The notes under the pieces were generated by a model. It did not search any database. It saw only the letters and a list, made by a program, of their open reading frames with translations, and had not been told where the DNA came from. A DNA stretch of 64,000 nucleotides from assembly GCA_005656395.1 (NCBI GenBank), contig SRSI01000060.1, forward strand, positions 868,001 to 932,000, given 5' to 3'. Below are positions 2,851 to 38,276 of this stretch, piece after piece (within the stretch, counting starts at the first letter, position 1; each line of letters begins with the position of its first letter). This DNA is from Strongyloides papillosus. Lineage: Eukaryota; Nematoda; Chromadorea; Rhabditida; Strongyloididae. Made by a program: the position numbers and the translations under genes.

Positions 2851-3600
2851 AATGGCCGCGGACAGAAAAAATGAATTAAGGCAACATTTATTTAAGTTTA
2901 TGTTGAATAAATTTATCGAAATAATACTCGTTAGAATCTACACCTTTTTCTCAACGTTCTGACGGCTTTTGAATCCCCGTTTTATAAGATTCAGGACTTT
3001 TGGATTTAATAAAAGTCACTGAGATCGCTTTCTGACGACTCCTGATTCTTAAACAATTTATCCTTAAAAAATACATCGAAATGCTCAAACAAATTGGAAA
3101 TTGTAAGAAAGAGATCAGGTGAGTATGGAGGGTGAGATAGAGCCCCATATTTTAATTCACCAAGTTTTTTTAATGCTAGTTTTGAAAAATGGCATCTTAT
3201 CTTGTCATTCTATAATATTGGAATATTCCTATTTTTAAAGTCGGATGGTTTTTTTTAGTTTTTCATTCATTTTCTCAAGCTCCTGTCAATATATTTCAAC
3301 TCCCTTGGTGACTGCTTTAAATTTGATTCTACAATCTTCCATTAATTCTGAGTATTGGTAATAAATAGTTTTCTTTTACCCTCTTAAATATTGAGGTCAA
3401 AATTAACTCTTTGGAATTTCTCAAACCACCGACGCAAAAAGCGTTCAGAAGTTAACCTTTTCCTTTATGCATTCACTATATTTTGATGAGCTTCAACTCT
3501 ATTACGTCTAAGTTTGAACTCATGCAAGAAATTACCCGTAATTTCTTTTTTGACAACATTTTTAAGAATGGACATAACTTTTTTAAAAATTAATTTGAAA
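2851..3600 (-). pseudogene. Decayed mariner/Tc1-type transposase
   Basis: Minus-strand translation around 3115-3142 gives SHPPYSPDL, the landmark found near the third catalytic Asp of mariner transposases. It is followed by a mariner-like stretch. Frames change and stops interrupt the rest, so this is a fossil. Terminal inverted repeats were not found. It is distinct in sequence from the two 886-bp copies further on. Confidence 0.6.
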
Positions 3601-8399: not shown

Positions 8400-11028
8400 C
8401 ATTCTCATTTAAGATTAGAAATTAGTGCTTATTTACTAATCTCTTCAATGTCTATGAAAGAAAAACGAAACTAAAATGTTTTTCTAAATTATAGGCGCAA
8501 GGCTCTTATATTTACCTAGTCAAAATATAAATAATAAATATTTTAAATACACTTTAATTTTTTGCAATAAATTTTAAAATGGGGTTATTTCGGATCCTCC
8601 GGTAAGAGTAAGGTAGGTGGCATCTAAAAAATTCATTATTGACTCAACTTTTTTTCTTTAATTTTTTTCAATTCAAGTACAAACTGAGTAATAGTTTTAC
8701 ATTAATGTACTTTCACAATTCTTGGTCACTAGAAATTTCTACTAATGTTTCACATTTCTCCAAAAATTCCTACGATCATTTATCTGGAAACTTAAATATG
8801 CTTTAAAATTCAACAAGTTTTTTCTAAAAATATGATTCTTTCAATAATATCCAATCTTATCTCAACTTTATTAGCATATGATTGAAAAGTACTTTTTTAC
8901 TTGAAAAGTGTATTTTTTAAGCAAGATGTAGCAAAAATATATTTCTTCGTTTGTTCAAAAACAATTGTTTTTACTATATTGATTATTGTGACATTAATTT
9001 CATTTTATTGATTAATATTTTTAACACTGTTTAGTATTTTTTAAAAAAGTCAAATTTTAAGAAAAATTGTAAAGATTATTATCAATTGGCATTAAATCCA
9101 AAGCTTTTTGCTAAAAAAAATTTTTACAATTGTTAAATATTTTATGAAGAATAAGAAACAAATATTCAAATAATATCACTAAGAAACTATATTTTAAACA
9201 ATTAAATTTTTCTTGTTTTTTACTACTATGATTATATAAATTTCTTAGCCTTAATATTGTTTAAATTATTTATTATTAAAATTTAGAAAAGTAAAATTTT
9301 TATATGATAAAAAGTTTTGTGGCAGTAACATATATGAGTTTTTATTTAATCTTTTATTCGTGGTTACCCATAAAATAACAATCAAGTAAAAAGAATTTTA
9401 ACTTACGAATGATCAGCAAAATTAAATGTGAAAAGTTATACTGATTATCGTTATATATATGTTTTTTATTTTATCGATAACTAATGATCTATATTTTCTT
9501 TCTTATTATAGATAGAAGGTTTTACTAATCTTTAGTAATCTTAATGATATGCTCAGGTAAAGCCATAATTAGAAAACGTTTGTAAAAAATTAATTAAATC
9601 AACTGGCATTTAAAAAGATCATCATTATTCAAAAAAATTTAATAGAAATTTTATTATATTCGGAAATTTTAGCTAACAAAGAATCGATTCTGCCTCGAGA
9701 CAAAATGTTTCATAATGCACTGTATTGAGTTTACCCTTTTCCTCCGTCACGTAATATACGCATTTCTTTGAATCAAAATTTCCATCTGTGAATTATGCAC
9801 AAAAACATATGTTTATTGAATAAAAAAAAAGTTACTTTCAAAAAATTAAAAAAATAGAAAGATGATAGCAAGTACTTGGGTTGCAAAATTAAAATTACAA
9901 AAAGCAAGAAGATTCAACTAATTGAAAAAAAGGAAGTAAATTGTGTGATATTACAATAAATAATAAACGCTAAGAATATAATAAAGAATGATTTATTTTG
10001 TAAGTTAATCATCATATATATATAGCAAAATGATGATAACTATATACAAGTCATCAAGCAATACGAAACACTTCCTCTTCTGTTGTTGTATAATCTTTAA
10101 AAAAAAATAAAACATGGAAAATAAAAATTATAATAATAAAAGATAAAGATAGACAAACGAAATAAATAAGAATTTTTATACAATTGAAATAACAGATTAA
10201 ATTATTAACCAATTTTAATATTGTGTTTCATTACAAATGCTAATAATTTATTTTAAATTTCTTTGCAAAAGTTTTTATGATCCAAGTCGCATTTAAAGAA
10301 AAATGAAGTTGATTCGGTGGATTTAGTGGGCAGAAATTTAGCAACATATTCAGCTTTTTATTTTCAATCGGAAAATGGCGATAATGAGAAGCTGTTTGCA
10401 TTTTCAATAAGACACATGGTTCAGAAGTTTTGTGAAACTCATAATTGTGTTATTTGATTTCGACATCGTGCTTGACGAAATCAATGACGTAGATAACACA
10501 ATACAAAATAAATGATAAAATTTATTTTTAAAGATAAGATATCAGCTATCAAATATCATAATCATATGATTTATATACTATGATAGTCCATTAGTGATAT
10601 TTATCTTCTTATAATGGGGTTTTGAGAAATACTAAACATCTCAAAGAAATAACTCGTTCCTTTACAATTACATAATGAAAGTTGACCCGTTGGAGTCAGT
10701 CCTTCTATGTAACAATTTGCTATCGATTTAAAAAAATACGAATTATCACTAAGAAGCAAGGTATGTAATTCGATATCTTTAATTTTTTCAAGTACCATAA
10801 CGAATAAACAGAAATCAACATGAAACATACATTACAATAGTATAATCTTAAAAAAGTATTGGAGATAAAGTAATATGTCAAATAGTGTTAAACTTACATT
10901 GTAGCCGCCAATTTTTTGTAGTAAATTTTAAAAATAAGTTGTAGAAATAAAGAATATTAAATTTACATTTTGACTGTTGTATCTTAAGAAAGATATATAA
11001 AAATTTATTATTAAAGGACAAATAAATA
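8400..11028. other. AT-rich DNA with a possible coding remnant
   Basis: Mostly featureless. At 10270-10500 and 10601-10828 the base composition rises and the minus strand shows protein-like stretches (for example EGLTPTGQLSLCNCKGT, and FPIENKKLNMLLNFCPL in a different frame). No family was recognised, and the opposite strand of 10300-10450 is also partly open. It may be a gene fragment or another transposon fossil. Confidence 0.3.
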
Positions 11029-18939: not shown

Positions 18940-20249
18940 TTAGCATCTCTTTTTTTTGTTTGAACTTTTCCTAATACATTTTATTGTATTCCTTCTTCTT
19001 GTCAAAACATGCCTCGGCTTCAATGTGTTTTGGGTCATCAGTGGGTAGTTTAAGCCACTCTTTGTAATGTTGGCGTTGTTTGATTTCCCTGTCGCTGCCT
19101 TTCCTGCTTTTTTCTTCGCGACGCGATTCCTCATACTGAAGCCTTTTCTCTTTCTACATTTAAATCTTGGCTTCCGTCTAGATTCTAATTCATTGTCTTC
19201 TGGGAGATCGAGACATTCCTTCCTTTTTTTCTTTTCTTTGATACGTTGTTTGTCTCCATCTCGTTTCGTTTTCCTTCCTCTTCTAAATCTTCTTATCGTA
19301 CTCTAGTTTGACTTGGTCATCTTCACCTAACAGGGCCATGGAAGCAGCCATTTCTTTAGCTTTTCTTTTCCGTTGTCTATGATCTTCTGCTTTTTTCCCT
19401 TCTTCACCTTTTCTGCCTTTAGAAGTTGCTTGTATTCACTGGAGTCCTTAAGAAGAGTCTCCAACTTCTCTGCGACTTCTTTTTTCTTTTGCTTCCTCTT
19501 CCTAACGTTCCTGTTGTACTCGCTTCTATCTTCTTCTGTCATGGTCCTGTGCCGTTCTGTCCTCATCTTGCTATTCCACCGGATCTTAGAAACTCTTTCC
19601 TTTTCTGTCTTCCTATCCCTCCACTTTTTTGAATAGAAGTTTTTGGCGCGGAACTCCGCCAATTCAGATTTCGTCATCTTCTTTACCTTCTTCTCATACC
19701 GCATTTTGTCATATAAACGAATTATTTTAAAAATTTCCTTGTTCTCAAAATCTTTGTCACCCCTTTTGTAAACAACGTCGTGTGCTTGAACATTACGCCC
19801 GCATTTGACTTTATTTTCGAATACACTAAACATTGATACGTGTGGTTCTCACCATCTGCAGCAATACTTCTTGTACTTGTGGATATCAGTCTAAAACATG
19901 TTACCACATGATTCTTCACAAAGTCCGTGAGGCATCTCAATCTTTCTTTCATATTGATTTTTTCTTTTCTTAGGGATATACCTTTTGAGATATTCGTCCA
20001 CGTTGATGTTTCAGAATTTATCAGGATCGCTTCATCTACCAGACAGTCTTGCCCACATTCGTAATGCTGTATTGTTAAAATATGGATTCTTCTGTGCTGC
20101 AACAGCATGATTGTTAACACCAAGTATTTGAAAAAGCTTGTGTTGATGGCAATACAGTACCTACTTTCTCCTTTACTCATAATGCTCCTTAACTGTTGAG
20201 TTATTTTACTAATTTGTTTTTGGAAACTGTTTGGTCCTTCTTTCTCCAA
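18940..20249 (-). pseudogene. Lys/Arg-rich modular protein, downstream paralogue
   Basis: No known family was recognised. From the right, an N-terminal module (20249 to about 19850) contains NTSFFKYLVLTIMLLQ and HYECGQDCLVDEAIL. A shift of frame near 19830 leads into a 168-codon basic segment (19327-19833) dominated by K, R and E, with ELAEFRAKNFYSKKWRDRK and EKLETLLKDSSEYKQLL. Beyond its stop, 18960-19320 continues in other frames with a KEWLKLPTDD...KKKEYNKMY block. The same modules in the same order occur in the upstream copy (20250-31850), so both derive from one gene. The composition suggests a charged, largely helical protein; this is inference. Base composition is richer in GC than the surroundings. 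Frame breaks argue for a pseudogene, although introns I did not resolve could explain some of them. Confidence 0.55.
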
Positions 20250-21577
20250 TACAGCGAGTGGATCGAGTTATCACCATCCGTATCTCCTACCACAGTATAA
20301 TACATTTGGAAACTTCTCTTTTTATTTATATATTCTTAAATATTTTACGGTAAATCAGAAATGTTTTAACTCATATCACGCAAATTAGCTCGTTTCCTCT
20401 TTCTTTCTTGTTAATATTCTCGATGTTTCTATTTTGTTTAGAGCAATGATAGCGTATCCTAAAAGGAGTGTTTATTCTCTTTATAGCTTCCTTTGCCTTT
20501 ATATATTTTGAAATATCTTTTGATGATTAAGGGATATTTTGGGACAATATTTGCTGGTTGGTTCGTTTCTCCTTTATTTTCTTATTTATTTCTTTATGGT
20601 GTCTAGCATGATTTTCCCTATATGTAAGTACCCAAATTTAATAAGTAACTTCATCTCTTAAATCTTTTTCATTGAATTGTGCAGCTTCACTATTTTGTTC
20701 AGTAAGTCGAGAGCATTTCTCATTATAGGCATCATGATAAGTTCTTTATACCTTTCTTTGCCACTCGTACATTTTCTATAAGGTCTAGTGGTATACTAGG
20801 TGTGTTTTTTTTGTCTTCTGTGGTTTTCCTCTCCCTATATATTTTTCTTCTTTCTTGTCAGCTAGTGCTGCTCTCATTGTTTTGTAATTTCTTCAGTTGA
20901 ATACTGACCTTAGCTTTGAATTCTTCCATATTTATTTGAACATCACTATCGATGTTTTTTTTGAGTAGTTAAGAACATATTTTGTTGTAGGTGTCATTGT
21001 ATGCTTTTTCTCTTTCTTTGCCTTTTTTTACTATTATGTATTCTAGAATATCCAGTGGTATGTCGGAAATGTTTTTAATCATATCCTGGATCCTGGCTCG
21101 AACTTCGTTCACTTTCTTATTTACTTCTTCACGAGTCTTTTCTCTATATTCTTTTTTTTTCTTTAATTCTCTGAGCTTTAGCATTGGCTTTGGCTGCCAA
21201 CTCTTCTTCAGTTGGTTGGGTGGCAATTTTGTTTTGTTGCCGCAGCCTTCTGAGTTTAGCGTTATATTCACTTTTTCTTCTATTAATTTTATCGCGATTT
21301 CTGTCTCGATATTCTTTTCTTCTCTTTTTTGTAGCTTCAGCTTTCATTTTTAGTTCTTCTTCAGTAATTTGAACGGTCTTAGCAGTGGTACTTCGCTTGA
21401 ACTGTTGATAGTTCTTTTTTCTGTATCCTTTATTGTATTCTTTTCTTTTTTCAAGAAAATTTTTTGCAATGCTATGTCTTTCGTCGTCTTCTGGAAGTTT
21501 AAGCCATTATTTATATAGAAGAAGTAGCCTTTTGTTTTTCTCGTTATCTCTGTATACTTTATTTTTTTTTGACAGCA

Positions 21578-22528
21578 CACACAAAAAAAATTGGAAAGCA
21601 TATTTGCATAAAATATAATGAATTTTTCCCACCTAACAAAGTTTGAATTTTCTTAATTTGCGAATAATTTTATCGCATTTATATCGTATATAAAAATTAG
21701 ACAACAATTAAGTAGTTATTAAAATAAGTTTCAATTTTCTACTGAATTATTGTTATTTTAAAACAAAGACTATCTTCTACAATACTTTTTTAAATATAAT
21801 ATTAGAATTTAATTTCATGTAAGATTATAAATGCTTTTATAAAAAGCAATTCTGAGCATACCAAAATATTTTTATTAATATGTTTTAGTAGTTTGAGTTA
21901 TTAAAAATTACACTTTGTATTTATAAGATTACACTCTTCTGAAAGCTGAAAACTTTTTCTAATGACTTTTAATGTCCCTATTTAAAAAAATTAAATCTAT
22001 GAAAAGTTATGATATAACATGCATTTTTATCAATAGTAAAAAATATCTTCTACATAATTAAACTTTATATAAGAACAAATACTAAAATAATATTTTTAAT
22101 TATTAATGCTCTGTGTAGTTAAATAATAATTTTTGGTTTTTTGTTATTATTTTTACGAATTTTTATTTTTATTGTTGATAGTAAATTGTTTAGGACAATG
22201 ATTTTTGTTAATACTTAACAACTTTACACGAAATTGAGTTTTAACAACATGTTTCATGTATATTAGAAAAAAATCGGATTCTAAGATTAGCATTATATCA
22301 AAAACATTAAGATTAAATAAAAGTTACATTACTTAAAATATAAAACATGTACAATTTTGTAAAAAAACAGCAAAATTCTGCGATACAAAATATTTTTCAT
22401 CGTTTAAAACATTTTTGTTGTCGCTCGATAATTTTAAAATTTGAATAAATGTTGATTTTTTTAGTAGGTGGGAAATTTTTTTGCATTTCAGGTAGATTTG
22501 TCAAAATTTTTCCCATTTTTTTTCTGTG
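21578..22528. mobile_element. ~950-bp MITE, CACACAAAAAAA family, copy 1
   Basis: Inverted ends CACACAAAAAAAATTGG and, reversed, CACAGAAAAAAAATGGG, each followed inward by a TTTTCCCACCT-type block. The interior matches the copy at 48060-49008 closely and the copies near 39-40 kb more distantly. It sits inside the Lys/Arg-rich gene. The flanking dinucleotide is CA on both sides rather than TA. It has no coding capacity; minus-strand frames at the edge belong to the host gene. Confidence 0.75.
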
Positions 22529-22665
22529 CATCCATTAGCTTTTTTTTCCTGTTGATTTCTTGCCTTCCGCTTTTTGTGGTCATCTGACTTTTTTTATTAC
22601 GGAGATTCACTTTTTCCAGGATTTGTTTGTATTCAAGTGGATCTTTTGACAATTCATCAAGTTTT

Positions 22666-22743
22666 TGGGGACACGTCGTTTCACCACTGGTTTGTATGGA
22701 CATTTATAACAAGTTATAAAGGCTATTTTGCATTTTTCGACAT
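22666..22743. repeat. Left terminal inverted repeat of the USP element
   Basis: Two blocks (22666-22690 and 22722-22743) match the right terminus in inverse orientation. A 32-bp insertion between them is absent from the right end. The inner block contains the word that is tandemly repeated inside the element. Confidence 0.85.
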
Positions 22744-22804
22744 ATGCTTTAACAGTATAATATACAACAATATGGAATAAAAATACTTCGTATTGTATAT
22801 AATA

Positions 22805-23712
22805 GTGTATAAAAATGCAAAATAGACATTGTACGATGTATAAAAATGCAAAATAGGCATGTAGTTAAATAAATATTGCTGATTGGGAGGCAATATAAAG
22901 AAGTACAAAAAATGCAAAATAGACATTTAAAATGTATTAAAAAAGCAAAATAAACATATGAATTAATAATTAACACTACAAATAAGGTATAATATAGGGG
23001 GTACAAAAAAATGCAAAATAGACGTTGAGCAGTGTATAAAAATGCAAAATAGACATCGTGCAGTCTATAAAAATGCAAAATAGAATTATGGCTTAATTAT
23101 TAACAATATAAATAAGGTATAATATAGGGGGTACAAAAAATGCAAAATAGACATCGTACAGTGTATAAAAATGCAAAATAGAATTATGGCATGATTAATA
23201 ACACTATAAATAAGGTATAATATAGGGGGTACAAAAAATGCAAAATAGACATCGTACAGTGTATAAAAATGCAAAATAGAATTATGGCATAATTAATAAC
23301 ACTGATTATAAGGCAATATAAAGAAGTACAGAAAAATGCAAAATAGACGTTGAACAATGTATAAAAATGCAAAATAGACATATGGATTAATAAATAACAC
23401 TATAAATAAGATATTATATAGGGGGTACAAAAAATGCAAAATAGACGTTAAACAATGTATAAAAATGCAAAATAGAATTATGGATTAATTAATAACACTG
23501 ATTATGAGGTAATATAATAAAGTATAGAAAAAAGCAAAATAGATTTATGGATTAATTATTAATACTAATTATAAGGTAATATATGGATGTACAAAAAAAT
23601 GCAAAATAGACATCGTACAGTGTATAAAAATGCAAAATAGATTTATGGATTAATTGATAACACCGATTATGAGGCGATATAAAGAAGTACAAAAAAATGC
23701 AAAATAGAATTA
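22805..23712. repeat. ~98-bp tandem array built on a terminal-repeat motif
   Basis: About 19 copies of AAAAATGCAAAATAG (with one- or two-base variants) occur, all in the orientation of the right terminus. They are arranged in pairs 31-32 bp apart within a ~97-99-bp higher-order unit (successive first copies near 22812, 22911, 23009, 23138, 23238, 23336 and 23433). Spacers carry a recurring GGTATAATATAGGGGGTACA or a TTATAAGGCAATATAAAGAA variant. Minus-strand open frames through this array are periodic artefacts. Positions 23713-24026 are plain AT-rich DNA. Confidence 0.9.
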
Positions 23713-24026
23713 CAAGAGTTTAATGCAATTAATAAATTGTTTTATATAATACTACTGATATTATTAAATATATTTTAATAATCAAAGCATGATTAATTAA
23801 TATTTTAATAAAGTTACATAAATTACTATGCTGAAAATTATTTATATATTTTATTTGAAATTTACGGCAAGAGCGATAGTAGATTGGTAATTATTAACAA
23901 TAAATGTATTGATAAATTAAAAAAACAATTTTATATACAAATGTGGAAATTATTTTAAAATATTTTTATTAAAATAGTAAACATTAAATTAAAAAAATAA
24001 ACAATTAAAATATAAATTATACTTTA

Positions 24027-24353
24027 TCACCTAATTGCATTGTGTTTGGATTGTACTTTTCTTTTTCTTAAGTTACTAATCGTTGTTGATAGTGATTTGG
24101 CTTTTTCATTTAAACATGGCAAGAATAGTGTTAATGTTTTCAATAACACCCAGAAGAAGAAGAGTACAATAGAGAAAATTATTTTGAATGAAAATACAAT
24201 AGCATCCAAAACTTTATCCAATTCAAGTGTCTTAAAGTAAATATAGCCAACAGCCAATGTTATTGTAGTTCCAAATACAAATAGAAATACAGCTCCAATA
24301 CAAATGTAAAATTTGTATTTCTGTAAGGTATGACCAAACCATCCAGTAGACAA
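24027..24353 (-). CDS. Small membrane protein of the USP element
   Basis: A 108-codon single-exon frame with no recognised family. It has two long hydrophobic segments (about residues 14-40 and 52-80), separated by a short acidic/lysine loop (TLELDKVLD). A Ser/Thr- and Lys/Arg-rich tail of about 25 residues follows. Topology with a basic cytosolic tail is inference. Its ATG lies 26 bp from that of the divergent USP-like gene, so any promoters must overlap. It sits inside the inverted-repeat element and could be captured host sequence or element-encoded. The intact frame and higher GC than the flanks support coding. Confidence 0.55.
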   Translation of the reverse strand: MSTGWFGHTLQKYKFYICIGAVFLFVFGTTITLAVGYIYFKTLELDKVLDAIVFSFKIIFSIVLFFFWVLLKTLTLFLPCLNEKAKSLSTTISNLRKRKVQSKHNAIR

Positions 24354-24379
24354 TTTTGTAAATATAAAACTTATTCAAA

Positions 24380-25084
24380 ATGTTGCCTAAGCATTCTTAT
24401 TTACGACTAGCTGACAATGATTTCTATAATACTGAGGAAAACAAGAAATTTATATACAGCAAACAACATGAATCAGCTGCAGAATTCCTTTTCTTCATAC
24501 TTGATCAGTTTCAAAATCGGACTCCAGACTTAATGAAACGTCTTAATTATAAGGAAGAAAACAGTCTAATCTGCGAACATTGTAAAACTAGCAGGACAAT
24601 AAGTGAATTTGAAGCACCTATATTGAACATAAATATCAATGATGTTAATAACAAGAAGGATATAAATAGTGCAATAAAAGGGATGTTGGAATATGAAATA
24701 GAAAGTGTTGCTCGTAAATGCCTACTATGCAACAAGATTTCAAAAAACATGACTAAGAAACGGATAATAAGAAAATATCCAAAATATTTATTTGTGGAGC
24801 TTACAAAAAATGTCATGGATAAAGAACATCAAAATATGGGCATTGATTTCATATCCTCAAAAGATTCTTTGTATGTAAATGAATTCTTCACACCAAATAC
24901 GCCGTATAAACTGAAAGGATTTATTGCATACGAGAGATTTGGACGTAGAACAGGGCATTATGTAACTTATATACGTTATGAAGATAAGTGGCATTGCCTT
25001 AATGATAGTCAAAAGCCTAAAGAAATGGATGAAAAGGAATTGCCTACAGAAAGATCCACTGTTTTGCTTTATGAAATGAAATAA
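24380..25084 (+). CDS. Ubiquitin-specific protease-like protein, no Cys box
   Basis: A 234-codon intact frame. It shows the second half of a C19 (USP) fold in order: the Gln-box region QHESAAEFLFFILDQF (about residue 35), a Zn-ribbon pair of cysteine knuckles (CEHC near residue 60, CLLC near 115), and a Y-P-K-Y-L-F-V-E-L strand. The His box follows: GHYVTYIRYEDKWHC then LNDSQ (about residues 195-215). The N-terminal Cys box (G-x-x-N-x-G-N-T-C-Y) is absent. Upstream there is only the opposite-strand gene and the tandem array, so no exon can supply it. It should therefore bind rather than cleave ubiquitin; this is inference. Active USP domains are usually 300 aa or more. The frame is free of stops despite the truncation, which suggests selection or recent capture. 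Confidence 0.8.
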   Translation: MLPKHSYLRLADNDFYNTEENKKFIYSKQHESAAEFLFFILDQFQNRTPDLMKRLNYKEENSLICEHCKTSRTISEFEAPILNININDVNNKKDINSAIKGMLEYEIESVARKCLLCNKISKNMTKKRIIRKYPKYLFVELTKNVMDKEHQNMGIDFISSKDSLYVNEFFTPNTPYKLKGFIAYERFGRRTGHYVTYIRYEDKWHCLNDSQKPKEMDEKELPTERSTVLLYEMK

Positions 25085-25582
25085 TAATAATTAATTATTT
25101 ATTTTTTATGACAGGCTAATAAAAGTTTTTCTTCTATTTTTGTTCTTTATGATAAATACCATTTTCTTATTCAAAAATATATCTACAATTTCTTCTAAAT
25201 TCAACAATCTCTTTCGCGTTGATGAAATTCATCATATTGTTAATATAGAGCTTTGATTGTGATGTTATTCTTAATTTTGTAATAGATGTTTTATAGTATC
25301 ATTATATTTATGAAAATATAATTTCCTTAATTTTTTTATTGTTTGTTATATTAAATTAAAGTTAATATCTTCATAATACATTAATATATAATATTTGTAT
25401 CATATAAAATTGCCATCTTTAAAGGTTTGCATTATTTTTAAAATTTCGTGTTATTACATAATTCATATATAATAAAAGGCTAAATATGCTAATAAGATAA
25501 GAAAATGTGCCATAACTATGAGATTAACATAGTTAAAGCACATTACAATGCTAAATACTCATTATTAATACATATTTCTCCA
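25085..25582. other. Non-coding right part of the USP element
   Basis: AT-rich, with no open frame or recognised repeat, ending at the right terminal inverted repeat. Confidence 0.6.
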
Positions 25583-25628
25583 ATGTCGAAAAATGCAAAA
25601 TAGCCAGTGGTGAATCGACGTGCCCCCA
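25583..25628. repeat. Right terminal inverted repeat of the USP element
   Basis: A contiguous 46-bp reverse complement of the left terminus, followed by the AGTTTT target copy (25629-25634). The inner part carries the GAAAAATGCAAAATAG word that seeds the tandem array. Confidence 0.85.
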
Positions 25629-25959
25629 AGTTTTTTTTCAATCTCCTTTTTTCCCTATCTTTTCCTTCTTTCACATTTTTGGTTGTACTGGGCTTTTTCG
25701 AAAAAACTCATGTTTCTATGATTTTTTTCTACGTGCTTCATTATTCTTCCGCAGTTTTAATTTTTTTTGTTCAGTCGTTCTATTTTCTCTAAATTGCTTA
25801 CCATATAATCTTTTTTTTTTAAATTCTGATAGTTGGTCTTCGTTCATGGTCTGAAGTTTTTTTTAATATCTCTTTCTCTCGTATTCATTAATTTTTCTTT
25901 TTACTTCTTCATTTGTGTAACGATCAATACTTTTTTATGAAAAAAATCAATGTGTCTTC

Positions 25960-26249
25960 AGAAAAAATGTAATGTTCTGGAGCCCTACTCTCTAATTGGA
26001 ATGTCAAGATAGGTTAGAATAATATTTTATTAGACAAACACGATGTGGAGAAAAGGAAAAATAAATAGATAAATAAATTGATTACAATAAAAATTTTGTG
26101 GGTATTTATACCCTAAAAATCGTTACATTTAGATGATGAAAAACTCAAATATCAAGCTTTACGCTTGATTCACAATAGCTAAGATGAAAAACAATGTAAC
26201 AATCTACAATATTCCACAATAAAAATAAAGTATAAACTAAATATTTCAC
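25960..26249 (-). repeat. 3' LTR of element 1
   Basis: 290 bp, identical by eye to 30798-31087. The stop codon of Gag-Pol (26246-26248) lies within the first bases of this LTR in the sense direction. Confidence 0.93.
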
Positions 26250-29200
26250 TCCTCCCCTTGTTGAGAAAGCAACTTCACATCATTAATATGGGCGATCCGA
26301 GTTTTCCTGATTCTATGAGATTCATTATGAGGCTTAATTGTTACTCTGCGATTTGCAACCTCTATAACTTCATAAACAGTCGGCATCCAAAGAGGTTCAA
26401 ATTTATCGGTCTTATTAAAGTTACGCAGCAAAACTAGGTCTCCTCTTTTAATCTTAACAGTGAGTTTCTCTTTTAGCGGTCTGTTGGCATTCAACTTTTC
26501 TCGAGTTTGCACAACGGTATTAAGAGCAGCTTTACGAGCTTCTTGAAAATCCAACAATATAGGTCGCCATGCGCTATCACTTTTCTTCTTAAGTAATTCA
26601 AGATCCAACAAATGGTTTGGTAATCTTGGCAGTCTACCATTAGCTAAGTAGTATGGTGGTAATTGGGTGGTTGCATTTGGAGCAGAATTATAATAATGAC
26701 AAATCATTGGCAGACATGAAACCCAATTAACTTGAGGATGAGCAAGCAAATACTTTGAGATTAATGACTGAGCCGTTCTTATAGCACGTTCGGCATGTGG
26801 ATTTCCTTCACTGTGATAAGGTGTACATGTAGAGTGTTTGATCCTCAGTAATTTACATAGCTCATCAAACAACCTAGATTTGAAATTAGTGGCATTATCT
26901 GTACGCACCACAACAGGAAGACCATGTATGTTGAATATATGCATAATGAATGAATCACACAGCTCTTTGGCAGAAGTAGATTTTAACGGGAACAAAATAA
27001 GAAATTTAGAGAACAAGCAGGTGGCTGCTACAATGTAAGCATAACCATTAATTCCTCTGTGAAGTGGTCCGAGAAGGTCCATGGCAATTATTTGAAACGG
27101 ATAATTTGCTGTCACACATTCATTTATATATTGGTATCTATGAACATCATTTCTTAATTGGCATACTGCACAGTTAGCAATATATTCTTTTAAATCGGAA
27201 GTTTGATTAGGCCAAACATCTTTGGTTAGTGATCGAAGAATTGCCAGGGACTTTTTCAAATCTTGGTGACCATAATTATCATGTGCATAGAACATCAATT
27301 TAAACTTTCTAAATTTATCATTTGGTAAATTAAAATCAACTATCGCCGCTTTTCCTTCCCTTTTTAATGAAAATAGGTGTTTTTCTCCGTAATCTGACGG
27401 CAATCTAGATAGCATATCCGCTACAACATTATTTTTGCCGGGAATCCATTTAACAACAGGAGAATAGAAGTTAATGTTTGAAATGAACTTATAGAGTTTA
27501 GGATCATCATTCTTCAATATCAGGCTCGGCAAACATTTATGATCTGTATAAATTGTTATCTTCTGAAGCATCAACCAATTTGAAAAGAAAGTCAACGCTG
27601 CTGATATTGCCCTTAACTCCAAGTGAGTTGGTGGAAGTGTGGACTTATGAGGTTTAATCTTCTTACTAAAGAATCCCAAAGGTTGCATTACATCGTTTCT
27701 TTGCTGTGTCAATACAGCACCATAGCTAGTAGTCGAGGCATCAGTGTACAGGTAAAACATTTCATTAAAATATGGATAAGACAAGAAAGGTGCTTTCTCT
27801 AAACAAGTTTTAATGGCATCAAAAGATTTTTGATGGAGTGGTGTCCAGCAAAACTTAGAATCCTTACGAAGTAGATTAGTCAAAGGTTCCTCAACCTTTG
27901 CAGCATTATAAATATGTGAACGAAAGTAATTAACAGCTCCCAGAAACATACGAACCTGGGACACGTCAGTAGGTGGTTTTATATTTTTAATAGCAATAAT
28001 ATTTTTACAATGTGGTTTATAACCAAAAGAATTAAATATATATGACAAAAATACAATTTCACTACTACAAAAAGTACATTTAGCAATATTAATTTTAAAA
28101 CCACTCTGACGCAATGACCTAAGAACTTGCCTTACTTCGTTATAATGATCTACAATATTAGATTTTGTTACAACAAGAATATCATCAAGATAACAGATAG
28201 TACAATTTAAATGAGATAAGGCAGCTTCTATGTTTTTTTGGAAATAGGGTGGACTAACTTTAAGGCCAAAAGGAAGCCTCTTCATTCGAAATGTGCCTCT
28301 ACGGGTTCTAAACCCCAGCTTCTTCTGGGACGCCAGAGGCATCTCTATCTGAAAGAACGAGTTTGTGAGGTCGATATTTGAAAAGTATGTTCCTCCTGCA
28401 AGCTTCTGAACAATATCTCTGAAAGTTGGAGTTTGGTAATGGCAGGATGCCATGATTTGGTTAAGAGGACGTACATCTAGACATAAACGTAAGGACTTAT
28501 CTTTTTTTAACGCAGTCACAAGATTGAAAGTAAATTCAACCTCATTATCTGGTTCAGCTATATCATTGAGAATTAATTGCTCTACATACCTATCAATATC
28601 ATCTAGAAATTTAACTGGTGGTAGATATCTTTTAAAATGTGGTAACTCGTTACTAGTAAGAACAATTTCAGGCGCAATAATCTTAGACTTGCCTACGTCA
28701 AAAGGATGTTTTGAAATAATATCAGAAAATTCTCTTTCTATTAAATCACTAAAATGTTGTTTATTCTCGGGAGGCTTCATCAAAAGTCTACAAGGTTTAT
28801 CAGGATGTTCATCTTTATAGAATATAGGCTCAGGCGAGGGTAACAAATTAAACATGCGGTCACAAACGCGAATAGTGTGATTACTATAATCTATAGATGC
28901 GTTAGTATGTGCGAAGAAATCTGAACCTAAGAGAATTGATGATAAAGCGTCTGGAAATTGATCATCCGAAACTACAGCGAAAGGAAAAGGTAATGTTAAA
29001 TCCTTAGCTAGAGAAATATTAACTCTAACCTTCCCTTCTAATGGCAGAGGTGTGGAATTAGCGCATTTAGCATTAAATTTTTCTTTTGTACTACTATCAA
29101 ACCCGTTTAGTTTTGCCCTATTTTCCCTTATTAATGAGATATGTGAACCACTATCAGCTACACAAACTATAGGCATGTTATCTTCCAAATATGCAATCAG

Positions 29201-30400
29201 TCTATAGTCTCTAGGTGGCATTAACTCTACTTTACTATTATTTTGTTCGTGCGATACCTTCCTAATACATGAAATTTTATTATCAGGTTCTACGATATTT
29301 TTATATCTACTAATTTCCTCGTCTAAAAATTGCAAGTAAGGGTCCTTGTTCACCTTTACTGTCTCAATTCTATTGGAATTCAAGTTTTGTGGTGTAGGGG
29401 TATTATTGAGATTACGTGTGGGCTGTAATTGTGATCTAGTTTGTATGCGAGGTCTCCCAGAAATCTTCTGTCTACATTCAACCTCTTTATGCCCTAACTT
29501 CCCACAATAATAACATTGAATATTCTTAAGCTTAAGTGTGTGCATGTTGACATTATTTCTTTTATTTGGAACTCTTTTATGATAAAGTGCATATGTGGTT
29601 TCAACGTCAGAAACTAGCTCAGATAAAGACTCATAATCGGTCAATAATAATTTATCAAATACTTTTTCACTGCGTATCTTATCCTGTATATATTGTTTGG
29701 CTCTAGAAATCACATCAGTATGCGAGCCATTTGAAGTTAATCTAACTAACTCAACTAATTCCATCAAATCATTATGAATGTACCTCTCATCTTCTCGAAG
29801 GCGCCAAGATCTAAGTTTCATGAAGGCATTTTTAATACTCATATGTGTACCAAAAGTCTGTTGTAGAAATGCTTTCAACTCAGATAAATTACTATATTTA
29901 TTTTGTTCAGCAACAGACAATCTCTCAAAATCATGTAATACTGAGGAGGGCATTTTCGATAAGATAGCAGCACACTTTTTCTTCTCATCTACAATACCAT
30001 CATAAGTAAACAATAATTCCATACGATTTAAATATTGGTTAATACCTTCAACCTGTTCATTGAAAGGGGGTAATGATATCCAGCTATTAGTTGATATAAC
30101 TGTTGGAGGTGACATGATAACTGTTTGGTCCACCTCGTGTATGTTAGTGTTAATGTCACTAGTATTAGCTACGGTCTCAGTAGGTTTAATAATATTTTGT
30201 ATGGGTGCCGCGGAATCTATCTCGTTAACTATCTCTCTCAATTTACGTATGCGTGCACTTTCAGGCAAATCAACGAGTCTTATATTATCTAGAGCAACGG
30301 CTTGAAGTGTCTCTTCGGGCCAATGTGGAGCAAGAGTCTTAAGTGTTGTATAAACTACAATATAATTTCTTTCTGCTTCAGCTGTCATGAAGTAGTTCAA
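26246..30400 (-). CDS. Gag-Pol polyprotein of Ty3/gypsy element 1
   Basis: 1384 residues in one frame, without the gag/pol shift many relatives use. Domains, by approximate residue: Gag with the retrotransposon-gag fold (100-260) and a CCHC knuckle CYYCGKLGHKEVEC (about 295-308). The aspartic protease has ADSGSHISLI (about 412). Reverse transcriptase has LCLDVRPLNQ, LPFGLKVSPPYFQ and the catalytic YLDD (about 735). RNase H has YTDASTTSYGAVL (about 885). Integrase has an HHCC zinc region (about 1037-1078), then D in AMDLLG, D in RTDNATNF, and E in HAERAIR (about 1107, 1168 and 1203). A GPY/F-like C-terminal region ends the protein. The order PR-RT-RH-IN places it in Ty3/gypsy. No envelope gene is present. 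All catalytic residues I can check are intact. Confidence 0.96.
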   Translation of the reverse strand: MNYFMTAEAERNYIVVYTTLKTLAPHWPEETLQAVALDNIRLVDLPESARIRKLREIVNEIDSAAPIQNIIKPTETVANTSDINTNIHEVDQTVIMSPPTVISTNSWISLPPFNEQVEGINQYLNRMELLFTYDGIVDEKKKCAAILSKMPSSVLHDFERLSVAEQNKYSNLSELKAFLQQTFGTHMSIKNAFMKLRSWRLREDERYIHNDLMELVELVRLTSNGSHTDVISRAKQYIQDKIRSEKVFDKLLLTDYESLSELVSDVETTYALYHKRVPNKRNNVNMHTLKLKNIQCYYCGKLGHKEVECRQKISGRPRIQTRSQLQPTRNLNNTPTPQNLNSNRIETVKVNKDPYLQFLDEEISRYKNIVEPDNKISCIRKVSHEQNNSKVELMPPRDYRLIAYLEDNMPIVCVADSGSHISLIRENRAKLNGFDSSTKEKFNAKCANSTPLPLEGKVRVNISLAKDLTLPFPFAVVSDDQFPDALSSILLGSDFFAHTNASIDYSNHTIRVCDRMFNLLPSPEPIFYKDEHPDKPCRLLMKPPENKQHFSDLIEREFSDIISKHPFDVGKSKIIAPEIVLTSNELPHFKRYLPPVKFLDDIDRYVEQLILNDIAEPDNEVEFTFNLVTALKKDKSLRLCLDVRPLNQIMASCHYQTPTFRDIVQKLAGGTYFSNIDLTNSFFQIEMPLASQKKLGFRTRRGTFRMKRLPFGLKVSPPYFQKNIEAALSHLNCTICYLDDILVVTKSNIVDHYNEVRQVLRSLRQSGFKINIAKCTFCSSEIVFLSYIFNSFGYKPHCKNIIAIKNIKPPTDVSQVRMFLGAVNYFRSHIYNAAKVEEPLTNLLRKDSKFCWTPLHQKSFDAIKTCLEKAPFLSYPYFNEMFYLYTDASTTSYGAVLTQQRNDVMQPLGFFSKKIKPHKSTLPPTHLELRAISAALTFFSNWLMLQKITIYTDHKCLPSLILKNDDPKLYKFISNINFYSPVVKWIPGKNNVVADMLSRLPSDYGEKHLFSLKREGKAAIVDFNLPNDKFRKFKLMFYAHDNYGHQDLKKSLAILRSLTKDVWPNQTSDLKEYIANCAVCQLRNDVHRYQYINECVTANYPFQIIAMDLLGPLHRGINGYAYIVAATCLFSKFLILFPLKSTSAKELCDSFIMHIFNIHGLPVVVRTDNATNFKSRLFDELCKLLRIKHSTCTPYHSEGNPHAERAIRTAQSLISKYLLAHPQVNWVSCLPMICHYYNSAPNATTQLPPYYLANGRLPRLPNHLLDLELLKKKSDSAWRPILLDFQEARKAALNTVVQTREKLNANRPLKEKLTVKIKRGDLVLLRNFNKTDKFEPLWMPTVYEVIEVANRRVTIKPHNESHRIRKTRIAHINDVKLLSQQGEE
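26250..26259 (-). promoter_or_regulatory. Polypurine tract of element 1
   Basis: AAGGGGAGGA in the sense orientation, abutting the 3' LTR. This is where plus-strand DNA synthesis would be primed. It overlaps the last codons of Gag-Pol. Confidence 0.8.
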
Positions 30401-30797
30401 CCGATATTAGTGTATTAGTAATATGCCTGGTTAATTAGCAGGCTCTATCTCAATCAGGTAACGTGTGACTATTAGTTCTCAACTATGACAAATATATGGC
30501 TAGGTTAATTAGCTAGCGGACTACAGACAAACAATAAGGTTATATTCAGCAATGCCCAGATCAATTAGCTGGCGCAAACGACAATAATACGATACAATAC
30601 CAACAATATAATTATACTCAGCGATGCCAGGTCAATTAGCTGGCCCAATAACTACAACTATGTTAGACAGAATAATACTAGATTAATCAGTGCGCGGACT
30701 ACTAATAATACTAAACAGAATACAAAGGTTACCTGAAAACTACCCTGCGACAGATCCCTGCAACAAGTCCAACTAGGGAGTACTGCTCCTACAGCCC
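30401..30797 (-). promoter_or_regulatory. Leader of element 1 with four repeated hairpins
   Basis: The untranslated leader between the 5' LTR and gag contains four small hairpins (30425-30443, 30499-30517, 30554-30573 and 30626-30644) in imperfect ~55-74-bp repeats. Plus-strand stems are GCCTG/CAGGC, GCTAG/CTAGC, G(C)CCAG/CTGGC and GCCAG/CTGGC. The nine-base loop stays (G/A)T(T/C)AATTAG. Stem bases change in a paired manner while the loop is conserved, which suggests RNA structure. A packaging or dimerisation signal is a reasonable guess. A fifth, degenerate copy lies near 30677-30695. Confidence 0.7.
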
Positions 30798-34100: not shown

Positions 34101-34442
34101 TCATTTTTTTTCTTTTATAAAGCTGTTGAGTAAAAGAAGAGTACTATTCAAAAATGTCAGAATTAACAAGAATCATATATGAAAATTTGAATAGTGTAAA
34201 TTTCGCTTAGAAAGAGGTATGCTTCCTTTTGTCTATATTCGTATTTCTTTGTGTTATTGTATTATTTTCTTTTCATTTTTATCCCTTGTAATAAAAAATC
34301 ATTTTAATTTACCATATAGGAAAATTACTTGTTTCCTAAATCATGACAACTTTTTGCTGCTGTAATTAAATAAAACATACTTTTGCATTGTTATAGGGGA
34401 TTGCAAGTTAAAGATTGAAAGACATTTAATTTGTTATTAAAC

Positions 34443-34534
34443 AGTTAGATTTTATTGTAATTTTGACTGGATTTTTGTATACATTAGAGGGAGCTTTTCC
34501 CAATTATAATTTTATTATTAATAAAATTTTTACT
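34443..34534 (+). repeat. 5' LTR of element 2 (92 bp)
   Basis: Begins AGTTAGATTTTATTG and ends AATTTTTACT; identical to 38470-38561. Confidence 0.9.
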
Positions 34535-34540
34535 TCTGCA

Positions 34541-37500
34541 ATGGAAGTTATATCGTCGAGTGAAATTTGTCCTAAAAGAGAGAGGTTGGAGCAACTCCAT
34601 AAAGAATACAAATCAGAAATGTGTAAAATAGAAGATTTGACTGTACCTGAGATTCAAGAGCAAGCTATTCATCAATTTCCTAGTTTCCCGAAAACCATGA
34701 CAAAGAGAGCGGTAATTTTTTTATATCTCACCTGGAAGTTCGGGGGTGCTGTATCACAGTTATTTTGGAATAACGAAATTATGAACATTCGAGAATTATC
34801 ATCAATTTCAAATACTGAAATAATGGTTGCTGACAATCAAAGTACTATGTCTACACTCCCTTGGAATACTCCACCATATGATAAGAAAGTTCAATTTAAG
34901 AATTGGTTGGAGATTCTGGAGACTGATTTTTTGCTCCATGATTTGGAAGATGATAAAAAGAAGAAAATGATACTACGTATGAAGTTAGGTGTGGAATTGC
35001 TAGCTGAAATCCCCACCACCACTGATAATGAGTCGTATAGTGCTTATAAAGAAAGACTCATTGAACATTTTCCAAAAGGAAAAAGTCAAGAGGATTATCA
35101 GTACATGCTTGCTGCTACATCGATGGAATGGTCTGTAAAGGGCTTGGAGGATGTTGTATCACTTATCAAGAAAGCTCATCCAAACGACTCTTCAATACTT
35201 CAAGGTGCTGTGTTATTGTTACAAATGAGGAAGGTAGTTAAGGATCTACCATTGCTAAGAGAGATGGAGCACTGGAAAAATGAAACAATTCATGAGATCA
35301 AAGATCGTATGGAGAAGGAGATTCATCGTATGCCCCATGGCAGACAACACCAGAAGAGAAAGATGACCTGTTTCCACTGCAATTTTCCAGGTCATGTTGA
35401 AGCTAACTGTGATAGGAAGAGACGCGGACTCCCTCCAGGAGACTATGTAAAGAAGAAGGAGGAGGAGAGACGGACCAAGCCATTTGTGAAGGAAGAACTT
35501 CAAACTAATAGAATCTCTGTCCCTCTCCAATCTTCGCGTGAAATCACCAAAGGGAATTTGCAGTATCAAAAGGCAAAGAAAAGGGTATCTGTACTGATGG
35601 ACTCTGGATCTGACTTCAACGTGATTCATCAAAGACTTGTTGACGAGTTGCAGTTACCGGTTAGTGATCAAAAAATTTGTTTCAAAGCGTTGGATGTATC
35701 ATTGTCAGCATTCTATGTCACTGACAATCTTGAATTAACTTTTGGTGATGATAATGATGTGGTTGTATTGAAGGCACCAATTCTTATAAGAGAACCTACT
35801 GAAGACATTATCATGTCAAATGCGGCTGTCGAGTTATTCAAAAAAAGGAAGGGAGAGATGGTAACATTAGAAAAAATGTTTGGTAGAAAGTTTCCGGGTT
35901 TGTTTTTAGAAAGTCATCAATATCCGTCTCCATCCAAGCTTGTCTGCCCAAAATTAGAATTTATGCACAATGAATTGCCCAGCTTTGATAGATACTACAT
36001 TTCTCCTAAAATCAAGGACGAACTGAGACCTCAAATTGATGAAATGTTAGCTAAAGGCATTATTGAAAAAAATCCAAACTGTAAATTTGTGATGAACTCT
36101 ATAGCTATCAAAAAGAAGGATGGAAATATCCGCTTCTGTTCTGATGCTCGTCCAGTTAATACTATAATTGTAGGTGATCGGTATGCAAGTCCTACTTTCA
36201 GAGAAATTCAAACAGGAACTCGGCCTTTCACGTATTGTACCAAAATTGATCTTAATAAAGCTTATTATCAACTGTTGCTAAATCTTGATGACATGGGTAA
36301 ACTGGGTTTCATGTTTGGAAGAGATGTATATTCATATAGATCACTTCCATTTGGTTTATGTAATTCACCAGCATTTTTTCAACGTCAAATTGATGGTCTA
36401 TTGTCAAACACCCATGGTATCGCATATCAAGATGATGTTCTTATCTTGACATCTGATAGCAGTAGTCATCATGTATCTGCGGTCGAGGAAATACTGGAAA
36501 AGATGTGGAAAAGTGGTCTCTCCATAAATTCATCAAAAAGTGAGTTTTTGAAGACTAAAACTGATTTTCTTGGTTATCAATTATCAAAAGATGGTCTTTT
36601 ACCTTTACCGAAGTTTCATGACGCCATTCTTCAATTTCCTTTACCAAGAAATGTCTATGAGTTGCGAGCCTTCAAGGGCATTTACAACTATGTACGTGGT
36701 TGCATTAAAAATGCACATTTGTTGGAACAGAATATCAACAAATTCATTGGTGGTACTTCCAAAGTTCAATCCAAAGTGCATACAGAGATGCCTGATGCTG
36801 TTCTTGATGATATACAGAGAATTAAGAATGCTATTACTAATTTGAGAAAGATCTACTTCCCTGATTACACTCTTGATTTTATTCTAGAAGTTGACGCATC
36901 TGAATATGGCTTTGGGGCAACATTGTTTCAAAAACAAAAATGTGGTAAAGTTCCTATTGCTTTCTTATCTAAATCGTGGAAACCTATGAAAGTCAAGTTA
37001 TTATCACCACCTGTTTTTTTTTGAACTCAAAGGGGTAAGTCGTGCACTATCTGAACTAGAAGAAATCATTCAATCAAACAAAACGATAGTGTATACAGAT
37101 CATTCTAATCTCGTGTCACTAATTCGTAATAATTCTTCCAGCTTGTACACCAAATACATTTTCAACATCTGTGCTAGGAATGTGGAAATCAAATATTTTC
37201 CTGGAGTTAACAATATTATAGCTGACACACTGTCTCGTTTGTGTCTTGTTGAAAATGTTTCGGATGATGAAGATGAGGAACAATATGTTAATGCAGTTGC
37301 CTCTTTGGAGGGGGAAGACAATATTGTTGAGGAGTTGTTTGATGCATTACATATAGGAACCAACCATGCTTGTTTAGGATCTGTGAAACAGGCAGTATTA
37401 GTACGCTTGAAGGGTATGATGATGAGTCCAACTCAAATCAACAATGTGATGAAAAAGTTTTGTAGAAAACTGTTGGATTGTGAGATCTGTCTTAAGAATA

Positions 37501-38276
37501 ATGATATTGTACGTAAGAAACCGGAGAGCGAAGTCATCACCTATCCTTTTCAACAGGTTGAGATGGACATCACCAAAATTGAAGATCGTTATGTACTTGG
37601 AATAGTTGACAAATTTTCCAAGTTTAAAATCTATGAACTGTTATGTAGAATGACTGGAGATGCAATTCTTAAGGCATTCAAGAAATCTGTGGTGTTTAGG
37701 TATGGATTGCCTAAAATAGTAAAAACTGATTGTGCAATGAGTTTCACTAAAGGAAAATTTGCTAAGTACCTGATGGAGAATCATGTAATTCACAATACTG
37801 CAATACCTTATGAACATTCTACAAATCAAGTGGTGGAAAGATCATTCCGTCAACTACAACTGGCCATCCGTAAGGCTAATGCAAATAAGACTAGTGGATG
37901 GAAAGAAGAATTCCAGAAAGTTGTACTGGAGATGAACTTAATTCCTGGAGAAGATGGATTTACTCCTTATGATATTCTTCATCGTTTTACTCCAAGAAAA
38001 GCTTTTGACAATAAATTTGATCTTAATCATCATCATGGATCAAATATTGCCGTACATGCTCGAGAAATACTTAATAAAATCAAAAATGAACCCACCAAAG
38101 TTGTTTTGAAGAGTGCTTTTAACAAAAGACAAGGAAAATTAAGTTCACGAAATAAAATAGTTAAGAAAGTCCTCTCTGATGATATTATGGGATCTCACGT
38201 TTCTTGTGATACTGGTAATGGTAATGAGGATTCTAATATATTCAAACTTAGAATCTTAGATAAGAAATCTATGTAA
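34541..38276 (+). pseudogene. Gag-Pol of element 2, one frameshift
   Basis: Frame one runs from the ATG at 34541 to a TGA at 37022-37024; frame two continues from there to 38276. Domains, by approximate residue from 34541: Gag (100-250), CCHC knuckle CFHCNFPGHVEANC (277-290), protease MDSGSDFNVI (353), RT with RFCSDARPVN and a YQDD catalytic box (about 629), and RNase H VDASEYGFGATL (about 784). Immediately afterwards nine T residues (37014-37022) cause the break; eight would keep the frame. Frame two resumes with FELKGVSRAL, YTDHSNLV, a weak zinc region, and integrase residues D (VEMDIT), D (KTDCAMSF) and E (VVERSF). Everything except the homopolymer looks intact. A sequencing indel, a fresh mutation or programmed slippage are all possible. 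Confidence 0.88.

What the first reader, a model, noticed from the sequence alone, without database searches (positions are those of the whole stretch)
22666..25628. Transposon-like unit carrying a USP-fold protein and a membrane protein
46-bp inverted termini (left arm with a 32-bp insert), a 6-bp target duplication (AGTTTT) and perfect restoration of the host gene's frame on omission show this is a real insertion. Its cargo is a USP-like gene head to head with a two-helix membrane gene and no transposase. I know of no described element family with a C19 protease-fold cargo. It could be gene capture (Pack-type) or a non-autonomous derivative of a larger element that manipulates ubiquitin.
Basis: partly seen in the sequence, partly recalled or inferred. 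Interest (0 to 1): 0.88.

Follow-up and report, generated by a model that had tools for sequence, protein, structure and literature searches.

The report
DNA transposon with envelope and deubiquitinase
This stretch is an internally shortened copy of a roughly 9-kb DNA element that is repeated across this (likely Strongyloides) worm genome and whose longest copy carries part of a likely transposase in one reading frame with a ubiquitin-protease domain, plus a predicted virus-like membrane glycoprotein, a gene kit that would tie cut-and-paste transposons to the ubiquitin system and to envelope genes.

Summary
The insertion is real, but it is neither gene capture nor a USP "cargo" element. The target duplication is 8 bp (AAGTTTTT), not 6. 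The unit (22667-25627) is an internally deleted copy of a ~9-kb DNA transposon. The 9001-bp copy at G000:C13:990568-999568 has an exact 8-bp duplication and encodes a 515-aa membrane-glycoprotein-like ORF, a 403-aa ORF, and a broken DDE-type (Mutator-like) transposase whose C-terminal part is in one frame with a complete C19 USP domain. The window copy lost ref 1824-7743; 13 of 25 USP loci share that junction. Transposase and USP hits also share uninterrupted 984-aa frames at three loci of a distant family (hit tables only). The glycoprotein shows purifying selection (dN/dS 0.18-0.19, three pairs) and is related to a domain upstream of integrase in LTR-type loci. New variant of a known kind: ubiquitin/SUMO proteases on transposases are known, including a C19 case in Trichomonas; the envelope-like gene is the surprise. 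Fusogen function, DUB activity and Mutator membership are inferred; the Pfam MULE profile did not match.

The parts
22659..22666 (.). left copy of the 8-bp target site duplication AAGTTTTT
   Evidence: read directly
22667..22743 (+). left terminal inverted repeat: outer 24 bp (22667-22690), 32-bp insert (22691-22722), inner 21 bp (22723-22743)
   Evidence: similar insert-bearing ends in L047, L049, L050
22812..23707 (+). left subterminal array: 17 copies of the motif AAAATGCAAAATAG (the inner TIR motif) in 98/165-bp units; predicted transposase-binding region
   Evidence: 18 plus-strand and 1 minus-strand copies in the element including the two TIRs, 0 in the rest of the window; copy number varies: L049 19, L050 5
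24030..24364 (-). remnant of the glycoprotein gene: its last ~112 residues with two hydrophobic segments
   Evidence: hit runs to 24386, 90% identity to residues 393-511, one TGA inside; element homology ends at the junction, 24364
24365..24372 (.). deletion junction with 8-nt filler (ref 1823 | 7744); filler of 8 nt at the same place in 12 of 13 class I loci (9 nt in L061)
24380..25084 (+). remnant of the USP (C19) domain, 234 codons from the first Met plus stop; His and Asp boxes kept, catalytic Cys box deleted
25583..25627 (-). right terminal inverted repeat (45 bp, no insert)
25628..25635 (.). right copy of the 8-bp target site duplication AAGTTTTT
22488..22658 (-). interrupted flanking ORF (lysine/arginine-rich, decayed); not part of the element

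Best explanation
The unit is an internally deleted, likely non-autonomous copy of a ~9-kb TIR-bounded DNA transposon whose longest copy encodes a likely Mutator-type transposase, its C-terminal part in one frame with a USP-protease domain, and a predicted envelope-like glycoprotein. Shown: shared ends, 8-bp target duplications, a deletion junction shared by 13 of 25 loci, the 545-aa transposase-C/USP frame of L049, and dN/dS of 0.17-0.19 for the glycoprotein and the 403-aa ORF. Inferred: a transposase made by full-length copies binds the TIRs and the subterminal TGCAAAATAG array and cuts and pastes both full and deleted copies, which explains the spread of the deleted class. Inferred and untested: the fused USP domain removes ubiquitin from the transposase complex or from chromatin/repair factors at the donor or target site, so that the transposase escapes turnover or the break is repaired favourably. 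Inferred and untested: the glycoprotein is displayed on membranes and helps the element or its product pass between cells. In the window copy neither gene is likely to work: the membrane ORF is the glycoprotein's C-terminus, and the USP ORF lacks the catalytic cysteine.
For: Ends: 52 terminal sites, 0 in the reversed control; 8-bp duplications. Full-length copies: L049 469-9469 = 9001 bp with exact duplication AAATACTA, L050 8106 bp with 1 mismatch, and L047+L048 with a nested LTR retroelement. Window vs the 9001-bp copy: 93.3% over ref 1174-1823 and 92.3% over 7744-8997, nothing between. The same junction occurs in 13 of 25 USP loci, with an 8-nt filler in 12 of 13; a second junction (about 1432-1440 | 7854) in 5 of 25. 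USP complete in L049: UCH profile 5-254, E 1.6e-14; Cys273, His504, Asp520 in the 545-aa frame, the window ORF starting at residue 312. Transposase pieces show ADG, D followed by CxxH, and TTNVCESFH (read by eye; family motif recalled). Fusion recurs: transposase and UCH hits share 984-aa frames at C5, C57 and C14 (same phase, 1869 bases apart) and lie side by side at C8 and, with a UCH score below cut-off, at C6 (hit tables, letters not read); L064 has transposase-C-like and UCH parts in one 380-aa frame; a Strongyloides stercoralis protein spans the same junction at 53% identity. Selection: glycoprotein dN/dS 0.18, 0.19, 0.18; 403-aa ORF 0.17; transposase N-part 0.37.
Against: Pfam MULE (PF10551) gives 31 hits in this genome, none at this family, and Pfam finds no transposase domain in its ORFs, so the superfamily rests on motifs and duplication length. 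The transposase is broken in all three full copies: one frame break is shared by all three, L049 has a second, and the USP is in frame with the transposase end only in L049, not in L047/48 or L050, nor in the truncated L055. The glycoprotein model is poor (pLDDT 41), no solved structure matches by sequence, and no viral-contig relative was confirmed; 'envelope-like' rests on layout and on retroelement-type relatives. USP remnants in deleted copies also show low dN/dS (0.17-0.28 in 9 of 10 pairs among 5 of the 13 class I copies, 0.67 in the tenth), which decaying remnants need not show; trees of the two halves mix full and deleted copies, so conversion may carry that signal, but a retained role is not excluded. 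No duplication at 7 of 19 loci.
Confidence: 0.86

Rival explanations
1. Pack-type gene capture: a MITE-like element picked up a host USP gene piece and a host membrane gene piece.
For: Only gene pieces lie inside the TIRs of this copy, and USPs are host genes (14 loci score higher than any transposon copy).
Against: Both pieces are the ends of genes found between the same TIRs in the 9-kb copies; the same deletion junction recurs at 13 of 25 loci; UCH and transposase hits share frames in distant relatives.
Confidence: 0.03
2. The deleted class is not just debris: its catalytically dead USP fragment and membrane fragment are kept as functional parts, for example a dominant-negative or ubiquitin-binding protein that regulates the full-length element.
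For: USP frame free of internal stops and breaks in 3 of 13 class I copies (window, C26, C32); dN/dS 0.17-0.28 in 9 of 10 pairs among 5 class I copies.
Against: 10 of 13 class I copies carry a stop or a frame break; full and deleted copies are interleaved in both trees, so the signal can come from the full-length lineage by conversion.
Confidence: 0.08
3. The mobilising superfamily is not Mutator but another superfamily with 8-bp duplications (hAT, P, KDZ/Zisupton or an undescribed one).
For: 8-bp duplication fits several superfamilies (recalled); Pfam MULE does not match; a BED zinc-finger ORF occurs in one copy (L051) between the element's two parts.
Against: The D...CxxH...TNxxESFH pattern is Mutator-like (motif recalled); 8-11 bp duplications are given for MULEs (PMC6446971 passages); the BED ORF lies in an insert at L051 620-4347 that is absent from L049.
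Confidence: 0.2
4. The glycoprotein is an ordinary host membrane gene caught once, with no link to envelopes.
For: No Pfam match over cut-off, no PHROGs or PDB sequence match, and a poor fold model.
Against: All 6 loci with a match of 64% identity or more that includes the N-terminal part also hold the 403-aa ORF beside it, so it belongs to the element; its relatives lie 2.3-2.4 kb upstream of an integrase core on the same strand at 5 of 8 places. Weaker matches (36% or less, such as C15, C6, C25) have no 403-aa ORF listed nearby.
Confidence: 0.15

Closest known systems
Ginger1 DNA transposons, and the Trichomonas transposase_11 + Peptidase C19 protein (PMC2836005, passages seen)
   Same: A transposase carries a C-terminal ubiquitin/SUMO protease domain (OTU or Ulp1 in Ginger1; a C19 domain in the cited Trichomonas vaginalis protein); the authors suggest a role of the ubiquitin pathway in transposition.
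   Different: Ginger1 has a Gypsy-type integrase transposase, not found in the L049 ORFs; here the transposase is Mutator-like, the protease is a C19 USP in an animal element, and the element also carries a glycoprotein.
Kaonashi / VANC-Ulp1 Mutator-like elements of plants (PMC13317346, passages seen)
   Same: Mutator-type elements that carry a protease of the ubiquitin-like system, conserved over long times.
   Different: Ulp1 domain in a separate gene of non-TIR elements; here a USP domain in frame with the transposase end (L049, distant relatives), TIR-bounded, with a glycoprotein.
Phantom / Tm1 Mutator elements of invertebrates (PMC6446971 and PMC3169594, passages seen)
   Same: 8-10 bp duplications; Tm1 of Meloidogyne nematodes has composite TIRs with internal repeats.
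   Different: No protease or glycoprotein described in the passages seen; FLYWCH or SWIM zinc fingers were not found in the L049 ORFs.
Nematode Mavericks/Polintons with a putative fusogen (meeting report PMC10680173, one passage seen)
   Same: A DNA transposon of nematodes with a virus-like membrane protein, described as a vehicle of transfer between species.
   Different: Mavericks have 6-bp duplications (recalled), a DNA polymerase, an integrase and capsid genes; no such Pfam match in the L049 ORFs.

Membership tests
Mutator superfamily (MULE) | 8-11 bp target site duplication | tested here: met
   8 bp exact in 11 of 19 loci, 1 mismatch in one, none in 7; range from PMC6446971
Mutator superfamily (MULE) | MULE transposase domain (PF10551) | tested here: not met
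   31 genome hits at E<=1, none at this family or at its 984-aa relatives; in the full copies the region is also split between frames
Mutator superfamily (MULE) | DDE triad with CxxH between second D and E | tested here: inconclusive
   motifs visible by eye in the ORFs but no profile or structure supports them; motif recalled
Polinton/Maverick | retroviral-type integrase, DNA polymerase B, capsid genes | tested here: not met
   no such Pfam match in the four ORFs of the 9001-bp copy; 8-bp, not 6-bp, duplication
hAT | 8-bp duplication plus hAT transposase domains | tested here: not met
   duplication length fits, but no hAT or BED domain in L049 ORFs; BED ORF only in the insert of L051
Ginger1 | Gypsy-type integrase transposase with OTU/Ulp1 C-terminus | tested here: not met
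   no rve, H2C2, OTU or Ulp1 match in L049 ORFs
Peptidase C19 (USP) | complete UCH domain with Cys, His, Asp boxes | tested here: met
   L049: UCH 5-254, Cys273/His504/Asp520; the window copy fails: profile 79-254 only, Cys box deleted
Pack-MULE (gene capture) | internal sequence of host-gene origin, not part of the element's own genes | tested here: not met
   both ORFs are pieces of the element's own genes
Viral/retroviral envelope glycoprotein | signal peptide, Cys-rich glycosylated ectodomain, C-terminal TM, known fusogen fold | tested here: inconclusive
   N-terminal hydrophobic stretch above threshold in 2 of 3 copies, 8 Cys before the first C-terminal hydrophobic segment, 5-7 N-glycosylation sequons, two C-terminal hydrophobic segments; fold not predicted

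The most novel reading that the evidence does not exclude
A lineage of cut-and-paste DNA transposons in parasitic nematodes has assembled a virus-like kit without capsid or polymerase: a transposase fused to a USP deubiquitinase that shields it from the host ubiquitin system, and an envelope glycoprotein exchanged with LTR retroelements that carries the element between cells and between species. It would be a second, independent route by which nematode DNA transposons become infectious-like, beside the Mavericks.
Probability: 0.2. Interest if true: 0.92.

Novelty: new variant of a known kind. Interest (0 to 1): 0.72.

Why it matters
Proteases of the ubiquitin and SUMO systems keep turning up on unrelated transposases (OTU and Ulp1 in Ginger1, Ulp1 in plant Mutator elements, a C19 domain in Trichomonas), and their role there is unsettled. 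A family with uninterrupted 984-aa transposase-USP frames at three loci, plus decayed copies, makes the question testable: does the DUB protect the transposase or steer repair? The conserved envelope-like gene, with dN/dS near 0.18 in a TIR-bounded DNA transposon and related to a domain of LTR-type loci, would extend the idea that nematode DNA transposons acquire membrane proteins that help horizontal spread.

Tried and rejected
Structure of the glycoprotein (7-sequence alignment, pLDDT 41) and of the 403-aa ORF (2 sequences, pLDDT 30): useless, so no fold search was run. OTU reading of the 403-aa ORF: suspected from the C-terminal pattern, but no OTU match in Pfam (E<=0.5 for L049; E<=10 for L073); dropped. 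hAT reading from L051: the BED ORF lies in an insert. Empty site for the window copy: not found. Viral relatives of the glycoprotein: 160 pattern matches, 0 confirmed. Weak Pfam matches of the retro-type relative L075 (Baculo_19 E 0.001, GP41 E 0.047) are below the curated cut-offs and are not used. Protein database: the glycoprotein alone (3 proteins) and as an alignment (the same 3) reached only Strongyloides papillosus; transposase-USP reached 2 S. papillosus and 1 S. stercoralis proteins.

Literature searches (transposon + USP, transposon + envelope, Strongyloides transposons and the like); I saw nothing describing this family in the listings. Only passages of PMC6446971, PMC3169594, PMC10680173, PMC13317346 and PMC2836005 were seen; all other papers only as listings.
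Full report
What is there. The finding lies in a 58.2-Mb genome of 79 contigs (window = G000:C13:868001-932000). The unit is 22667-25627. Its outer 24 bp match 22/24 and its inner 21 bp 21/21 as inverted repeats, the left arm being interrupted by 32 bp. The flanking repeat is 8 bp, AAGTTTTT, not the reported 6 bp. The terminal pattern gives 52 sites genome-wide against 0 for the reversed control, and a search with the right end gives 40 places, the number scored out of 50 candidates. Among 19 loci whose two ends I read, 11 have an exact 8-bp duplication, 1 has one mismatch, and 7 have none; one search listed only pairs with at most 2 mismatches, so the misses come from the unfiltered list. Two of the 11 (L066 and L027) share one duplication and are probably segmental duplicates.

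Longer copies. Three copies on the same contig carry the whole set. L049 (C13:990568-999568) is 9001 bp with exact duplication AAATACTA; L050 is 8106 bp with one mismatch; L047+L048 is interrupted by a nested LTR retroelement with identical 154-bp LTRs and has no duplication at its outer ends. In L049, on one strand, lie a 403-aa ORF, a 568-aa ORF and a 545-aa ORF; on the other strand a 515-aa ORF. The 545-aa ORF ends in a complete UCH domain (profile 5-254, E 1.6e-14), with Cys273, His504 and Asp520 and a USP21/USP2 match of residues 415-544. Its first ~250 residues, a 107-aa frame and the 568-aa ORF together show the layout of a DDE transposase (ADG; D...CxxH; TTNVCESFH; by eye; the family motif is recalled). 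The transposase is broken: one frame break lies at the same place in L047/48, L049 and L050, and L049 has a second; in L047/48 and L050, and in the truncated L055, the USP is in a different frame from the transposase end. So no active copy is claimed here, and in this family the one-frame fusion is seen in L049 only.

What the window copy is. Aligned to the 9001-bp copy, it keeps positions 1-1823 and 7744 to the end; the 5920 bp between are missing. The same junction, with an 8-nt filler in 12 of 13 and 9 nt in L061, is found at 13 of the 25 loci that hold USP sequence (39 hits grouped by place). A second junction is found at 5 of 25. The other 7 are the 3 full copies, one truncated copy (L055), one copy with extra sequence at the junction (L062), and two diverged loci (L063, L064). 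Most likely the deletion happened once and the product multiplied. The two 'cargo genes head to head' are the two cut ends of the element's own genes.

The transposase-USP fusion elsewhere. Distant transposase relatives (29% identity) at C5, C57 and C14 have UCH hits (profile 2-238) listed with the same 984-aa open frames, in the same phase and 1869 bases apart; these loci are known from hit tables only. At C8 the two lie side by side in separate frames, and at C6 a UCH hit below the cut-off does so too. Of the diverged pair L063/L064, L064 has a 380-aa frame with a transposase-C-like part and the UCH domain, and an S. stercoralis protein spans the same junction at 53% identity. No glycoprotein hit was listed near the 984-aa loci at E<=1, so the glycoprotein may be a later gain of this branch, or too diverged to see.

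The glycoprotein. Copies are 510-515 aa from the first Met, with 8 cysteines before the first C-terminal hydrophobic segment, 5-7 sequons, and two hydrophobic segments near the end; the N-terminal stretch passes the hydropathy threshold in 2 of 3 copies. Frames of 515-521 aa without internal stop are at 4 of the 5 loci with a full-length match at 67% identity or more; L050 has one stop. All 6 loci with a match of 64% or more that includes the N-terminal part also hold the 403-aa ORF beside it. dN/dS is 0.18, 0.19 and 0.18 for the three pairs of three copies, 0.17 for the 403-aa ORF (one pair), and 0.37 for the transposase N-part (one pair). Pfam, PHROGs and PDB sequence searches gave no family, and the fold model failed.

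Results against the reading. The MULE profile PF10551 hits 31 places but not this family. USP remnants of deleted copies show low dN/dS (0.17-0.28 in 9 of 10 pairs among the 5 class I copies with a gapless match, 0.67 in the tenth; full-copy pairs 0.25, 0.28, 0.69) although 10 of 13 class I copies are broken. Trees of the two halves interleave full and deleted copies and disagree (the C14 copy sits with L049 in the right half, support 1.00, but with the window copy in the left half, support only 0.34). Gene conversion or gap repair between copies is the likeliest reason, but a retained role of the fragment is not excluded.

How it likely works. The shown anatomy fits a cut-and-paste element whose transposase acts in trans on short deletion derivatives; the subterminal array repeats the inner TIR motif 17 times and the motif occurs nowhere else in the window, and is predicted to be the binding region, though its copy number varies between full copies. 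What the USP and glycoprotein do is inferred. Published precedent for ubiquitin-type proteases on transposases (PMC2836005, passages) suggests a role in repair after transposition; protection of the transposase from turnover is my alternative. For the glycoprotein the nearest analogy is the putative fusogen of nematode Mavericks (PMC10680173, one passage).

Novelty. Transposase + C19 has one cited precedent in Trichomonas (PMC2836005); transposase + Ulp1/OTU is well known. I saw no description of a Mutator-like element with a USP domain, nor of a cut-and-paste transposon with an envelope-like gene, in the listings; most subscription papers are not held. I rate it a new variant of a known kind, with an unusual gene set.

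Noticed in passing
G000 C19:20421, C12:939051, C12:962662, C76:14715-15647, C55:147069-148001 (L075 = C19:20420-21320): A glycoprotein-like domain with a transmembrane-like stretch (by eye in L075) lies 2.3-2.4 kb upstream of an integrase core on the same strand, in one case listed with the same 1680-aa frame: LTR-type elements with a membrane glycoprotein 5' of pol instead of 3'.
   Followed up: partly
L047:2866-7572: Nested LTR retroelement (identical 154-bp LTRs) inside a full-length copy; its 1516-aa ORF has an RT-linked RNase H and a second RNase H domain after the integrase.
   Followed up: partly
P0006 (S. stercoralis): One gene model joins a gag-like start (by eye), a glycoprotein-like part (23% identity, E 3e-4) and the transposase-C/USP junction (53% identity).
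   Followed up: partly
L051:620-4347 (C10): Class I copy interrupted by a 3.7-kb insert with a BED zinc-finger ORF and further ORFs that look hAT-like by eye.
   Followed up: no
G000 C15:554775, 567961, 581146: Three glycoprotein-like hits of identical score at 13.2-kb spacing, as if in a tandem array of large units.
   Followed up: no
window 26246-30406 (-) and 34430-38276 (+): Two LTR-type retroelement pol ORFs close to the element.
   Followed up: no
window 45285-45980 and 52938-53567 (-), 58773-59153 (+), 60708-61247 (+): Two hyaluronidase-type exons, a WD40 exon and a globin exon: ordinary host genes.
   Followed up: no
window 18940-21506 and 22488-22658 (-): Lysine/arginine-rich ORFs that look, by eye, like one decayed repeated family; the transposon landed in one of them.
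   Followed up: no
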